From positions 248,001-312,000 of the forward strand of contig JAVJSI010000012.1 in the NCBI GenBank assembly GCA_040219515.1: a DNA stretch of 64,000 nt, in the 5' to 3' direction. The DNA comes from Acidimicrobiales bacterium. GTDB taxonomy: Bacteria; Actinomycetota; Acidimicrobiia; Acidimicrobiales; Aldehydirespiratoraceae. Below, in pieces: positions 37,513 through 42,408 of this stretch. A model generated the notes under the pieces. That model ran no database searches. It was not told the DNA's origin and worked only from the letters and a program-made list of their open reading frames with translations. Each line of letters starts with the position of its first letter. The stretch's first letter is position 1. The position numbers and the translations under genes are program-made.

Positions 37513-37914
37513 ATGCAGCTCACTGAGATCGACCACATCGCCATCGCCGTCAACGACCTCGAAGCCGCCATCGCCTACTACGGCGAGGCGTTCGGTGCCG
37601 AGGTCCATCACCGGGAGATCGTCGACTCCGACGGCGTGGAAGAGGCACTCATCAAGGTCGCCGACAGCTACATCCAGCTCACGGCCGCGACCCGGGACGA
37701 TTCGCCGATCGCCAAGTACCTCGAGAAGCGGGGCGAGGGCCTGCACCATGTGGGATACCGCGTCGACGACTGTGCCGAGGCGCTCGCGCAGATGGTCGAG
37801 GCGGGAGCCACCCCGATCGACAAGGCCCCTCGACCCGGATCGCGTGGCACCACGGTGGCGTTCGTGCACCCCAAGGGCAGCTTCGGCACGCTCATCGAAC
37901 TCGTCCAGGAGTAG
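37513..37914 (+). CDS. mce: Methylmalonyl-CoA epimerase
   Basis: This 133-residue VOC-fold enzyme converts (S)- to (R)-methylmalonyl-CoA. Features are EIDHIAIAVNDLEAAIAYYGEAFG, the VEEALIKVADSYIQL strand, EGLHHVGYRVDD and the closing FGTLIELVQE with the metal-binding Glu. Metal ligands His (DHIA), Glu/Gln and His (GLHHV) are all present. ATG 37513 follows TACGCT (37500-37505) with a 7-nt gap. It complements the propionyl-CoA carboxylase beta subunit gene (52360) in propionate metabolism. It is convergent with, and only 6 bp from, the helicase-glyoxalase fusion. Confidence 0.92.
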   Translation: MQLTEIDHIAIAVNDLEAAIAYYGEAFGAEVHHREIVDSDGVEEALIKVADSYIQLTAATRDDSPIAKYLEKRGEGLHHVGYRVDDCAEALAQMVEAGATPIDKAPRPGSRGTTVAFVHPKGSFGTLIELVQE

Positions 37915-37920
37915 GCCCGA

Positions 37921-40275
37921 TCAGAGGGTGATCACGCCGGTGGGGGTGAAGAGCGTGGCCGAGAGCATCATCTCGCCGCGCCCCACGTCGACGGGAACGG
38001 CGTATTCGCCGAGCCGACTGCCGATGGCCGGATCGGGGTGGCGGAGGTCGAGTGACAGCAGCTCGCAGCCGGGTGCGGCGGTGGCCGCCGGGGTCGCACC
38101 GGGCCATTCGATCAGGAAGGGCAGCACGCCGTCGCCGTCGAGCGGCGGTGCGGTCAGGCGCCACTTCAGCACCTGACCCGAAGGGGTGGTGCGATGCATC
38201 GCGAATGCGTCGCCGGGGTCGACGCCGCGGGACCGTGCCCAGTCGATCCACAGGTCGATGTGGGGAACGCCGGCTGCCCAGGCCACGAGTCGCGGGCGGT
38301 CGAGGTCGTCGATGCCGAACGGTCGCGGACCCGGCGGGTCGCCCTGGGACGGATCGGGACCGACGATCTCGAGATAGGTCGAGCCCCCGAGCGCCAGCAG
38401 CACGTTGCGCGACCCGAGACCGTCGTGACTTCCACCGACCGACGGCTCGACACCCCACGAGTCGCGGATCTCGGCGACGGTGTCGTCGAGGTCGGGTGTG
38501 GCGTAGACGAGATGGTCGATCGTGGCTTCGAGCCGGGCTGCGCGATTGATCGAGGGGTCCTTGGGCCGGCCGCCGAGATCGACGGCGACGAGGCCTCGCA
38601 CGTCGGCGAGCGAGTCGTGGCGGTCGAGGGTCGCCGAGCGACCGTCGGCGAGAGTGAACCGGCCACGAACGCCGGGCCGCGCCCGACCGACCCGATCGGG
38701 AAAGCCGATGGCCAGCGCGGCACCGGCGTCGCGCGGGTCGACGTCCGTTTCGACGATGCCCTGACGGCGGGCGAGGTCGGCGGCCCGGTCGCGTACCTGA
38801 CGCAGGGCGCGACCATCGGCGTCGGGATGATGGCGGTCGCGGTCGAGCAAGAGCAGCAGACGCTCGTCGAGATCGGCCGGCAGGTCGGCGGGTCGCCCCC
38901 GGAGGACATCGCGATCCTCGAGCAGCGCGGCCAGCAGGCACGACAGCCACGGGTGCCGCGACTCGACCACCATACGGGCGAGCCGAGGGTGGGCCGGGAC
39001 CCTGGCCATCCAGAGGCCGAGCTCGGTGGGCGCGCCGGCGTCATCGACGGCGCCGAGACGGCGCAGCAGGGCGACGCCATCAGCCCAGCTCTGGGCGGGC
39101 GGCTGGTCGAGGAACGGCACCTCGGCCGGGTCGGTGATGCCCCGCTGGGCGAGGTCGAGCACGAGATCGGACAACTCGACCTCGGTGATCGCCGGCGGAA
39201 GGAAGGGCGCCCGTCCGCCGTGCTCGACCTTCGACCACAGGCGAATGGCCACGCCGGGACCGGTGCGACCGGCGCGGCCGGCTCGCTGCTCGGCCGAGGC
39301 CCGCGACGTGGTGACGGTGTGCAGGGCGGTCATGCCGGTGCGGGAATCGTGGCGGGGCACCCGCGCCAGCCCGGAGTCGACGACCGAGCCGATCCCCTCG
39401 ACGGTGAGACTCGTCTCGGCCAGATCGGTGGCGAGCACGACGCGCCGCATCGACCGGGGGATGAGGGCCGCATCCTGCTCGGCCGCAGGGAGCGAGCCGT
39501 GGAGGGGCAGCACGGCGGGCCCGTCGGGGCCGAGATGGCCGGCGAGTTCGCGTTCGACTCCACGGATCTCGCCGACCCCCGGAAGGAACACGAGGACGTC
39601 GTCGTGGCCGCGCAGTGCCTCGTCGACGGCGCGGACCACCGCGGGCACGAGCGGATCTCGTCGGCGGCGCCGGGGCCGCCACTTGATCTCGATCGGGTGC
39701 GTCCTTCCGGCCGACGCGACGACAGGGGCCGGCTCGCCGATGCCGAGCAGGGTGGCCACCGCCGCCGTGTCGATGGTGGCCGACATCACGAGCAGGCGGG
39801 CGCGGAGTCCGTGGTGGATGCGGGAATGAAGGGCCAGCGCGAGGCCGGTGTCGCCCGGCAGGGAACGCTCGTGGAACTCGTCGAAGATGACCAGACCGGT
39901 GCCCGCCAGCGCCGGGTCGTGAACGAGGCGGGCCGTCAGCACGCCTTCGGTGACGACCTCGATGCGCGTGCCGGGGCCGACCCGGCGGTCGTCGCGGGTC
40001 ACCCAGCCCACCGTCTGACCGGGCTCCTCGCCGAGCATCGTCGCCATCCGTCGCGCCGCCGCGCGCGCCGCGACCCGGCGGGGCTCGAGCAACACGATCT
40101 TGTTGCCCTCGAGCCATCGTTCGTCGAGCAGCCGCAGGGGCACGAGCGTGGTCTTTCCCGCCCCGGGCTCGGCTTGCAGCACCGCGTGGCCGGTCGTGGT
40201 GAGGGCCTCGCGGAGCTGGTCGATCACTTCTTCGACCGGGAGGTCGGTGGGCGGCAACTGCATCGTACGCATCAT
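37921..40275 (-). CDS. hrpB: HrpB-type ATP-dependent helicase fused to a glyoxalase-like domain
   Basis: This 784-residue protein has a DEAH-family helicase N-terminus: AEPGAGKTT (Walker A, about 36-43), EPRRVAARAAARRM, VTEGVLTARL, IFDEFHERS (DEFH, as in HrpB), MSATIDT, ATDLAETSLTVEGI and QRAGRAGRTGPGVAIRLW. The HrpB conserved region after it (RFTLADGRSATLD...GLVAVDLGGRP) stops near residue 575. Usual HrpB proteins continue for about 200 more residues. Here residues 582-784 instead read ATIDHLVYATPDLDDTVAEI...STYLEIVGPDPSQ, matching a VOC/glyoxalase_3-type domain, with no stop or gap between. ATG 40275, 40272 and 40263 are all possible starts. A chance fusion of two genes is the main alternative. 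Confidence 0.85.
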   Translation of the reverse strand: MMRTMQLPPTDLPVEEVIDQLREALTTTGHAVLQAEPGAGKTTLVPLRLLDERWLEGNKIVLLEPRRVAARAAARRMATMLGEEPGQTVGWVTRDDRRVGPGTRIEVVTEGVLTARLVHDPALAGTGLVIFDEFHERSLPGDTGLALALHSRIHHGLRARLLVMSATIDTAAVATLLGIGEPAPVVASAGRTHPIEIKWRPRRRRRDPLVPAVVRAVDEALRGHDDVLVFLPGVGEIRGVERELAGHLGPDGPAVLPLHGSLPAAEQDAALIPRSMRRVVLATDLAETSLTVEGIGSVVDSGLARVPRHDSRTGMTALHTVTTSRASAEQRAGRAGRTGPGVAIRLWSKVEHGGRAPFLPPAITEVELSDLVLDLAQRGITDPAEVPFLDQPPAQSWADGVALLRRLGAVDDAGAPTELGLWMARVPAHPRLARMVVESRHPWLSCLLAALLEDRDVLRGRPADLPADLDERLLLLLDRDRHHPDADGRALRQVRDRAADLARRQGIVETDVDPRDAGAALAIGFPDRVGRARPGVRGRFTLADGRSATLDRHDSLADVRGLVAVDLGGRPKDPSINRAARLEATIDHLVYATPDLDDTVAEIRDSWGVEPSVGGSHDGLGSRNVLLALGGSTYLEIVGPDPSQGDPPGPRPFGIDDLDRPRLVAWAAGVPHIDLWIDWARSRGVDPGDAFAMHRTTPSGQVLKWRLTAPPLDGDGVLPFLIEWPGATPAATAAPGCELLSLDLRHPDPAIGSRLGEYAVPVDVGRGEMMLSATLFTPTGVITL

Positions 40276-40345: not shown

Positions 40346-41221
40346 GTGAAAGTCCATCTGGTCGACGGCACCTACGAGCTGTTCCGTTACCACTACGCGC
40401 CCTCGAACAAGGACACACGACTCGGCGCGCAGCGGGGTGTGCTCAACACCGTGCTCGACCTCGTGTCCGATGGCGCGACGCACATCGGGATCGCGACGGA
40501 CCAGGTCATCGAGTCGTTTCGCAACGACCTCTACGACGGCTACAAAGACGGCAGCGGCGTCGAACCCGACCTGCTGGCCCAGTTCCCCGAAGTCGAGGAG
40601 CTGCTCGAACTCGCGGGCTTCGCCGTCTGGCCCCAGGTCACCCACGAGGCCGACGACGGTATGGCAGCGGGCGCAGCGATGGCTGCAGCGGACCCCCGTG
40701 TCGAGCAGGTGATCATCTGCACTCCGGACAAGGACCTGGCCCAGTGCGTGACCGCCGACGGCCGGATCGTGCAGCTCGATCGTCGGCGCGAGATCGTCTA
40801 CGACCGGGCAGGGGTCATCGAGAAGTTCGGCGTGCCGCCCGAGTCGATCCCCGACTATCTCGGGGTGGTCGGTGACGCCGCCGATGGGTTCCCCGGTCTC
40901 CAGGGCTGGGGCGCGAAGTCGGCGGCCAAGATCCTCACCCGTTTCGGCCACATCGACGCAGTGCCGTTCGACATCGCCGAGTGGGACGGCGTCGACGTGC
41001 GGGGCGCGGCCAAGCTGGCGATGACCCTGCGCGAGAACCTCGAGGATGCGCTGCTCTTTCGTCGCATCGCCACGGTCGACCTCGATGCGCCGGTGAGCGC
41101 CTCCGTCGACGACATGGTGTGGACCGGCCCCTCGGCCGGCTTCGACGAGCGTTGTGCCGAGGTCGGCGCCGACCGGGTTGCGGCCCGGGCCCACGAACTC
41201 TTCGCGACCTACGAGGCGTGA
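40346..41221 (+). CDS. 5'-3' exonuclease (FEN/PolA N-terminal type)
   Basis: This 291-residue stand-alone nuclease resembles the 5'-nuclease domain of DNA polymerase I. It starts VKVHLVDGTYELFRYHYAP and contains GIATDQVIESFRNDLYDGYKDGS, EADDGMAAGAAMAAADPRVEQVIICTPDKDLAQCV, and the helix-hairpin-helix region GVVGDAADGFPGLQGWGAKSAAKILTRFG. Conserved acidic residues (D in LVDG, EADD, TPDKD, VVGDAADG) would bind two metals. It removes RNA primers or flaps. GGAGG (40331-40335) precedes GTG 40346. It is divergent from the helicase gene and followed at 1 bp by an HD hydrolase. Confidence 0.9.
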   Translation: MKVHLVDGTYELFRYHYAPSNKDTRLGAQRGVLNTVLDLVSDGATHIGIATDQVIESFRNDLYDGYKDGSGVEPDLLAQFPEVEELLELAGFAVWPQVTHEADDGMAAGAAMAAADPRVEQVIICTPDKDLAQCVTADGRIVQLDRRREIVYDRAGVIEKFGVPPESIPDYLGVVGDAADGFPGLQGWGAKSAAKILTRFGHIDAVPFDIAEWDGVDVRGAAKLAMTLRENLEDALLFRRIATVDLDAPVSASVDDMVWTGPSAGFDERCAEVGADRVAARAHELFATYEA

Positions 41222-41846: not shown

Positions 41847-41866
41847 TCAGCCAGTCCCTGATCAGC
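41837..41866. repeat. 15-bp tandem direct repeat spanning two convergent stop codons
   Basis: CAGTCCCTGATCAGC occurs twice without a gap, at 41837-41851 and 41852-41866. The palindrome TGATCA supplies the TGA of the plus-strand HD gene in the first copy and the TGA of the minus-strand rraA gene in the second. A slippage or duplication event at the junction of two convergent genes explains it. Confidence 0.85.
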
Positions 41867-42362
41867 TGCTCCGCAGGTCGCGGGCGGCCACCAGTACGCC
41901 GTCGAGATCGGCACTGACCCAGGCGCCGGGCCTGATCGTCGCACCGCAGAACGTGACCTCCACATCGCGGTCGCCGAGGCCTCTCTTCTCGGTCTTGCGC
42001 GGGTTGGTTCCCAGCGCGTGGATGGCCAGATCGGTCTCGGCCAGAATCGCTGCATCGCGTACCGCGCCGTAGACGAGGATGCCCGACCAGCCGTTGGCGG
42101 CCGCCTTGGCCGCCAGCTGGTCGCCGACGACGGCCCGCCGCCGCGACCCTCCCGCATCGACCACGAGCACCTTGCCGGTGCCGTCCTCCGCCACTGCCTC
42201 GCGCACCAGAGAGTTGTCCTCGAAGAGCTTGAGGGTGACGGCGGTGCCGGCCATCCGGTCGCGCCCGCCGAGTGAACGAAAGACATTGTCGAGGACGGTG
42301 ACCTCGTCGTCGTGATCGTCGCAGAGATCGGCGGTGGCGGGGAGATCGGTCACGAGTGTCAT
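41862..42362 (-). CDS. rraA: RraA-like protein / 4-hydroxy-4-methyl-2-oxoglutarate aldolase family
   Basis: This 166-residue protein carries RraA family marks: TADLCDDHDDEVTVLDNVFRSLGGRDRMAG, AVTLKLFEDNSLVREAV, KVLVVDAGGSRRRAVVGDQLAAKAAANGWSGILVYGAVRDAA, and ALGTNPRKTEKRGLGDRDV. RraA binds RNase E and modulates its activity; related proteins are metal-dependent aldolases. In this organism either role is possible. ATG 42362 is chosen; an in-frame ATG at 42380 is less likely. It is convergent with the HD gene across the tandem repeat. Confidence 0.9.
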   Translation of the reverse strand: MTLVTDLPATADLCDDHDDEVTVLDNVFRSLGGRDRMAGTAVTLKLFEDNSLVREAVAEDGTGKVLVVDAGGSRRRAVVGDQLAAKAAANGWSGILVYGAVRDAAILAETDLAIHALGTNPRKTEKRGLGDRDVEVTFCGATIRPGAWVSADLDGVLVAARDLRSS

Positions 42363-42408
42363 TCTGTCAGCCCGGAGCATCGCCGGCTGTCTGTGGGATC
42401 ATCGGGTG

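What the first reader, a model, noticed from the sequence alone, without database searches (positions are those of the whole stretch)
37921..40275. HrpB-type helicase with its C-terminal third replaced by a glyoxalase-like domain
Residues 1-575 carry all DEAH/HrpB motifs and the HrpB-specific region. At the point where HrpB proteins normally continue for about 200 residues, residues 582-784 instead read as a VOC/glyoxalase_3-type domain with no stop, frame change or gap. I know of no described role joining an RNA helicase-like protein to a small-molecule VOC domain. It may bring a metabolite or antibiotic-type ligand to the helicase, or two genes may have merged after a deletion. The next gene, 6 bp away and tail to tail, is another VOC protein (methylmalonyl-CoA epimerase).
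Basis: partly seen in the sequence, partly recalled or inferred. Interest (0 to 1): 0.72.

Follow-up and report, generated by a model that had tools for sequence, protein, structure and literature searches.

The report
HrpB RNA helicase fused to glyoxalase-fold domain
A bacterial RNA-helicase-like protein lacks its usual tail and carries instead a domain of a small-molecule-binding (glyoxalase-type) family; the swap is real, appears to have happened once, and has been kept in one bacterial family, but what it does is untested.

Summary
Window 40275..37921 (minus strand) is one 784-residue frame: residues 12-584 match positions 1-572 of 825 of the HrpB helicase model, 586-749 match Pfam Glyoxalase_3 far above cut-off, and HrpB_C is absent. 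It is not an artefact: 21 complete fusions with the same junction occur in independent assemblies of one Acidimicrobiales family (five genera); within that family all 23 copies whose 3' end is covered are fused; no fusion was seen in samples outside it. Fused helicases form one clade among ordinary HrpBs, fused VOC domains one clade apart from standalone relatives. Both halves are under purifying selection; helicase motifs and 39 of 44 conserved VOC positions are retained. 18 of 23 fusion genomes also have a full-length HrpB, so the fusion is usually an extra paralogue. The neighbouring methylmalonyl-CoA epimerase is unlikely to be the donor: adjacency varies, and in fusion-free relatives it sits beside the exonuclease gene. 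Most likely an ATP-dependent RNA/RNP remodeller with a VOC domain as ligand-binding regulatory or recruiting module; ligand, substrate and function untested. New variant of a known kind.

The parts
37921..40275 (-). HrpB-Glyoxalase_3 fusion gene, 784 aa, ATG at 40275, TGA at 37923-37921
38530..40275 (-). HrpB-type helicase part, residues 1-582 (GAGKTT 38-43, DEFH 132-135, SAT 165-167, QRAGRAGR 330-337)
   Evidence: TIGR01970 positions 1-572/825; PF00270 and PF00271; motifs in 21 fused proteins
37924..38529 (-). Glyoxalase_3 (VOC) part, residues 583-784; Pfam match 586-749, homology to many standalone relatives runs to the C-terminus
38500..38559 (-). junction region, residues 573-592: HrpB homology ends near R581-L582, VOC begins at about E583-I586 with no evident extra linker
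   Evidence: alignment with unfused HrpBs; same junction in 21 fused proteins
37513..37914 (+). methylmalonyl-CoA epimerase (another VOC protein), convergent neighbour; adjacency not constant; unlikely donor of the fused domain
40346..41221 (+). standalone 5'-3' exonuclease (PF02739 + PF01367), divergent neighbour 70 bp from the fusion's start, constant neighbour of the fusion in the regions examined

Best explanation
A lineage-specific paralogue of the DEAH-family protein HrpB in which the C-terminal about 240-250 residues of the model (HrpB_C included) were replaced once, in an ancestor of several genera of one Acidimicrobiales family, by a whole Glyoxalase_3 (VOC) protein. Shown: one frame, one clade, one junction, purifying selection, intact helicase motifs, retained VOC family residues, coexistence with a full-length HrpB in 18 of 23 fusion genomes. 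Inferred: the N-terminal part is an RNA-stimulated NTPase that remodels RNA or RNPs, and the VOC domain binds a small molecule (with or without catalysis or a metal) that gates the motor or places it on its target, taking the place of HrpB_C; the full-length HrpB, where present, keeps the original job. Ligand and RNA target are unknown.
For: Fusion in 21 complete genes with the same junction; in the family's 51 held genomes 23 carry the VOC part in frame with the helicase, 23 of 23 (two, G017 and G042, are cut by contig ends). Fused helicases one clade, SH-aLRT 100, inside the order's ordinary HrpBs (quick tree); fused VOC one clade, 100/100. dN/dS in the five pairs with dS below 0.5: 0.071-0.174 helicase and 0.067-0.225 VOC; median over 174 of 210 pairs 0.228 and 0.239, the other 36 being dropped as saturated. 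39 of 44 positions at least 90% conserved in 24 standalone relatives are kept (same residue, at least 95%) in 21 fused VOCs, 5 are not, none switched to another fixed residue. DEFH and SAT in 21 of 21, GAGKTT in 20 of 21 (one GAGKST), QRAGRAGR in 17 of 21 (two QRAGRSGR, two QRSGRAGR). A full-length HrpB with HrpB_C in the own genome and in 18 of 23 fusion genomes. Two helicase sites fixed differently in all 21 fusions: 378 (W in 45 of 45 unfused and 5 of 5 second-paralogue HrpBs, R in 21 of 21 fused) and 118 (Q in 43 of 45 unfused, V in 21 of 21 fused), which would fit adaptation of the motor to a new partner domain.
Against: No biochemical or expression evidence. Ligand and metal are unknown: H588, E636 and E723 are invariant in the fusions, but the position that would correspond to the epimerase's third ligand (recalled) is V, I or A at residue 664, E723 is E or D in only 22 of 24 standalone relatives, and the solved relative 3p8a has Q there. 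No constant partner gene names a pathway; the neighbours point to DNA replication/repair and nucleotide metabolism rather than RNA. 5 of 23 fusion genomes show no HrpB_C, so the division of labour with a second HrpB is not universal. Eleven other helicase sites conserved in unfused HrpBs are variable in the fusions, which could also mean relaxed constraint. Both structure predictions were poor (mean pLDDT 40.2 and 39.5). The domain could act only as a structural cap.
Confidence: 0.5

Rival explanations
1. The VOC domain is only a structural replacement: it caps the helicase C-terminus for stability or protein contacts and has no ligand function of its own.
For: HrpB_C is lost and the VOC domain takes its place without an evident linker. 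Residues fixed in 21 of 21 fusions but not in standalone relatives (W607, W676, W679, R683, R754, E757) could be an interface; their place in the fold is not known.
Against: 39 of 44 positions conserved in standalone relatives are kept, polar and charged ones included (H588, H617, N624, Y634, E636, R695 in 21 of 21), while the VOC parts are otherwise only 58-81% identical to the window's. That these residues line a pocket is inference.
Confidence: 0.25
2. A bifunctional protein in which the VOC part is an enzyme working independently (for example detoxification, or repair of a modified metabolite or nucleotide) and the fusion only ties expression or location together.
For: VOC proteins are often metalloenzymes (recalled). 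Family residues are retained. Nearby genes include an HD_3/YfbR-like nucleotidase and a 5'-3' exonuclease.
Against: Six regions with standalone relatives showed no shared neighbours by eye in ORF lists, families not scanned. One metal-ligand position of the epimerase is not a ligand here. The helicase part has two fixed changes in all fusions, which an unlinked passenger enzyme would not explain.
Confidence: 0.2
3. Assembly, binning or frame artefact, or a decaying gene.
For: The named records found (L103-L105) are metagenome-assembled genomes, many of the other assemblies are in tens to hundreds of contigs, and the own genome has an estimated contamination of 4.96%.
Against: 21 complete copies in independent assemblies, one in a single contig (G004); same exonuclease neighbour; codon-position GC steady across the junction; dN/dS well below 1 on both sides.
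Confidence: 0.02

Closest known systems
HrpB, DEAH-family helicase-like protein (TIGR01970; solved chains 6eud and 6heg)
   Same: Residues about 10-582 align; helicase motifs present; the NCBI model is passed just above its cut-off; best solved chains are HrpB; nested among HrpBs in the tree.
   Different: Lacks positions 573-825 of the model, PF08482 HrpB_C included; a VOC domain in that place; W at residue 378 (45 of 45 unfused) replaced by R in 21 of 21; in 18 of 23 genomes a paralogue beside a full-length HrpB.
Glyoxalase_3 (PF13468) VOC proteins, standalone forms in other Acidimicrobiales families (24 used; open frames 207-339 aa); solved relative 3p8a, 'uncharacterized protein'
   Same: Match extends beyond the Pfam model, to the C-terminus in most; 39 of 44 conserved positions.
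   Different: In the fusion it is the C-terminal part of a helicase; separate clade; 39-52% identity.
Methylmalonyl-CoA epimerase (neighbour, TIGR03081)
   Same: VOC superfamily; first-module His and the YLE/YIQ stretch align; passes the Glyoxalase_3 cut-off too.
   Different: Best Pfam model Glyoxalase_4; about 133 aa against 202; only 22.7 bits to the fused domain.

Membership tests
HrpB helicase (TIGR01970) | score above the curated cut-off of the equivalog model | tested here: met
   554.4 against 546.15 bits, only positions 1-572 of 825 matched; the second HrpB model NF008662 is not reached (455.8 against 1053), nor by the full-length paralogue (792.7)
HrpB helicase (TIGR01970) | C-terminal HrpB_C domain PF08482 | tested here: not met
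   absent in P0001; present in 6 of 6 unfused HrpBs scanned; so described as a variant, not as a typical HrpB
HrpB helicase (TIGR01970) | superfamily 2 helicase motifs (Walker A, DEFH, SAT, QRxGRxGR) | tested here: met
   present in P0001 and in the 21 fused proteins with the variants listed; motif names recalled
HrpB helicase (TIGR01970) | phylogenetic place among HrpBs, not HrpA | tested here: met
   quick tree of 72 rows with one HrpA row as outlier
HrpB helicase (TIGR01970) | RNA-dependent NTPase activity | not testable with these tools
   needs purified protein
Glyoxalase_3 (PF13468), VOC superfamily | score above Pfam gathering score over the domain | tested here: met
   122.5 (whole protein) and 125.8 (segment) against 25.1 bits
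Glyoxalase_3 (PF13468), VOC superfamily | residues conserved in standalone relatives retained | tested here: met
   39 of 44 positions
Glyoxalase_3 (PF13468), VOC superfamily | two beta-alpha-beta-beta-beta modules | tested here: inconclusive
   secondary structure of the model fits a first module (E15-20 H24-35 E40-42 E50-58 E61-68) but mean pLDDT is 39.5
Glyoxalase_3 (PF13468), VOC superfamily | bound divalent metal with the usual four ligands | tested here: inconclusive
   H588, E636, E723 invariant in 21 fusions, residue 664 is V/I/A; ligand positions recalled from the epimerase and placed by sequence only
anti-phage system protein | match to PADLOC models | tested here: not met
   no match for P0001 and two neighbours

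The most novel reading that the evidence does not exclude
A ligand-controlled RNA helicase: a bacterial DEAH motor whose accessory C-terminal domain was exchanged for a small-molecule-binding VOC domain, so that a metabolite or toxic compound switches or directs RNA/RNP remodelling. It would be the first such sensor-motor fusion in this helicase family known to me; the literature listings searched showed none.
Probability: 0.3. Interest if true: 0.75.

Novelty: new variant of a known kind. Interest (0 to 1): 0.5.

Why it matters
HrpB's cellular role and the purpose of its own C-terminal domain are poorly known (recalled); one held paper links HrpB of Xanthomonas to type IV pilus gene expression and biofilm formation (PMC4804567, abstract and three passages read). 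A natural, long-lived swap of that domain suggests that the motor can work with another C-terminal module, and gives a handle: if the VOC ligand can be found, the input to this helicase becomes testable. It also joins RNA machinery to a metabolite-binding fold, which I have not seen described.

Tried and rejected
Artefact: rejected by 21 independent complete copies. Origin from the neighbouring epimerase: judged unlikely (22.7 bits between the two; mce match beside the fusion in 10 of the 14 other fusion regions whose contig reaches that side, absent in L040, L041, L043, L071, and L072 ends too early), though it too passes the Glyoxalase_3 cut-off. Internal start giving a separate VOC protein: in-frame ATG/GTG/TTG codons at residues 555-592 exist in 18 of 21 genes, at shifting places, none in G003, G006, G013; some internal initiation cannot be excluded.

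Fusion outside the family: an even sample of 397 genomes of the order searched with junction plus VOC gave 59 genomes with a match; 6 are fused, all of family f1, and no match in the other 53 lies in an open frame over 349 aa. 396 genomes of the phylum searched with the whole protein: the only fusion is the window's, but only the two best candidates per genome were scored. Rare fusions elsewhere are not excluded. Defence system: no PADLOC match. Viral contigs: no relative.

Structure: two jobs with four sequences each gave unusable models, so no fold search was made. Function from context of standalone VOC relatives: six regions, no shared neighbours by eye. The helicase tree is the quick one, the careful search did not finish; rows cut short (L024, stretches aligned over 400 residues or less) and duplicate loci L073-L132 were left out. 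The VOC tree leaves out the standalone copy of G006, whose locus was not held, and matches aligned over 150 residues or less. The marker tree (26 rows) has weak forks (55-63), does not place G033 with the rest of its genus g3, and puts G012 outside.

Co-occurrence in the family (51 genomes): VOC fusion and HrpB_C 18 both, 5 fusion only, 2 HrpB_C only, 26 neither (of the two, G005 has a fusion fragment at a contig end, and in G038 the neighbouring exonuclease's close match is missing as well). The Fisher p of 2e-07 ignores kinship; I do not use it as proof of a functional link.

Full report
What is there. The minus-strand frame 40275..37921 encodes 784 residues without a break. By NCBIfam it is HrpB over residues 12-584, covering positions 1-572 of 825 (554.4 bits, cut-off 546.15). 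By Pfam residues 586-749 are Glyoxalase_3 (122.5 bits, cut-off 25.1), while HrpB_C is missing. The own genome gives three matches to the protein: this fusion, a full-length HrpB of 826 aa (43% identical, with HrpB_C, 913 bits on TIGR01970) and an HrpA (PF11898 in the same frame).

How solid the fusion is. Of 198 genomes searched, the own included, 21 hold a complete fusion (genera g1, g3, g8, g9, g10 of family f1). Further pieces lie at contig ends in G017, G042, G005 and, in a sixth genus g7, G012. In a search of the 51 held genomes of the family, 23 have the fused VOC part, each in frame with the helicase; one of them (G006) has in addition a standalone copy. The junction is at the same place in all 21: HrpB homology runs to about residue 582 and the VOC domain starts at once. 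No unfused copy of this helicase type was seen in the family where the contig covers the 3' end.

Where it came from. Helicase parts of the 21 fusions are one clade (SH-aLRT 100), lying inside the ordinary HrpBs of the order, next to three sequences of family f17 (support 86); the second HrpB of the family (five rows) is a different branch (quick tree). Fused VOC parts are one clade apart from 24 standalone relatives (100/100), which are 39-52% identical to the window's domain in open frames of 207-339 aa. The simplest reading is that a whole VOC protein was joined once to a shortened HrpB.

The place in the genome. Larger regions were fetched for 14 of the 20 other complete fusions and for the partial G017. 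In 14 of 14 with the contig long enough, and in the window, the 5'-3' exonuclease lies next to the helicase start, head to head; beyond the VOC end come recR, ybaB and dnaX in the 13 that reach so far. The epimerase lies beside the VOC end in the window and in 10 of 14. Seven fusion-free genomes of the family were looked at: in six (genera g2, g4, g6) epimerase and exonuclease matches are 6 to about 140 bp apart with no helicase or VOC match between; in the seventh (G010, g5) recR and exonuclease are close and no epimerase match was seen in the stretch. Of outgroups, G106 has epimerase and exonuclease side by side, G110 has them about 3.3 kb apart. A marker tree puts g2 with g1 inside the fusion-bearing genera (100 and 99), so g2 probably lost the gene; for g4, g5, g6 loss and never-had cannot be told apart, because forks are weak.

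Selection and residues. Nei-Gojobori dN/dS in the five pairs with dS below 0.5 is 0.071-0.174 for residues 1-560 and 0.067-0.225 for 585-784; medians over 174 of 210 pairs are 0.228 and 0.239, with dS high in many and 36 pairs dropped as saturated. Helicase motifs are kept, with few variants. Among 44 positions at least 90% conserved in the standalone VOC relatives, 39 are kept at 95% or more in the fusions (H588, H617, N624, Y634, E636, R695, W705 in 21 of 21), 5 are not, none changed to another fixed residue. In the helicase, 13 sites conserved in unfused HrpBs are changed or more variable in the fusions; two are fixed switches, Q118 to V and W378 to R, the latter W in 45 of 45 unfused and 5 of 5 second-paralogue sequences. 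HrpA of the own genome has Q and L at these places. I read the two switches as adaptation after HrpB_C was lost; that is inference, and the other 11 sites could also mean relaxed constraint.

How it most likely works. Shown: two constrained domains in one reading frame, and a full-length HrpB elsewhere in 18 of 23 fusion genomes (of the five without, G001 and G003 are 66% and 82% complete, G023, G026 and G033 90-93%). Inferred: an ATP-driven RNA or RNP remodeller whose accessory domain has become a small-molecule-binding module that gates or targets it. The rivals are a purely structural cap and an independent enzyme on a shared chain. Metal binding is open: three ligand-type residues are invariant in the fusions, a fourth position is V, I or A, and ligand positions are recalled from the epimerase.

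Comparison with what is known. By features it is a variant of HrpB that fails one defining feature (HrpB_C), and its tail is a member of Glyoxalase_3 by sequence. The best solved chain found by profile is 3p8a, uncharacterised, followed by methylmalonyl-CoA epimerases (that 3p8a is of this Pfam family is recalled). Searches of the held open-access papers for HrpB with helicase and glyoxalase (one paper, listing seen, one occurrence of each word), for VOC with helicase and domain architecture (none) and for PF13468 with helicase (none) gave no report of such a fusion. Subscription papers and domain-architecture databases were not available, so the architecture may be listed somewhere.

Verdict. 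Real, conserved, of single origin as far as the trees show, and unreported as far as searched; mechanism untested. Interest 0.5.

Noticed in passing
family f1, 51 genomes: HrpA, full-length HrpB and the fused HrpB largely come and go together by genus: 25 of 51 genomes (all those of g2, g4, g5, g6) show no match to any of the three, though g2 groups with g1, which has them. Exceptions exist, e.g. G002 and G004 have both HrpBs but no HrpA match.
   Followed up: partly
P0001 residues 118 and 378 (window 39924-39922 and 39144-39142): Residues conserved in ordinary HrpBs (Q in 43 of 45, W in 45 of 45) are V and R in all 21 fused proteins.
   Followed up: partly
window 41862-42380, minus strand: RraA-family gene (NF006875 'ribonuclease E activity regulator RraA', 200 bits against 136), third gene from the fusion; also near it in several but not all fusion regions. 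That RraA binds RNA helicases in E. coli is recalled.
   Followed up: no
window 40346-41221, plus strand: Standalone 5'-3' exonuclease resembling the N-terminal part of DNA polymerase I, near recR and dnaX also in relatives without the fusion.
   Followed up: partly
G006:C52:101513-102115 (L194:3475-4122): A standalone Glyoxalase_3-type protein (46% identical) in a genome of the same genus that also has the fusion.
   Followed up: no
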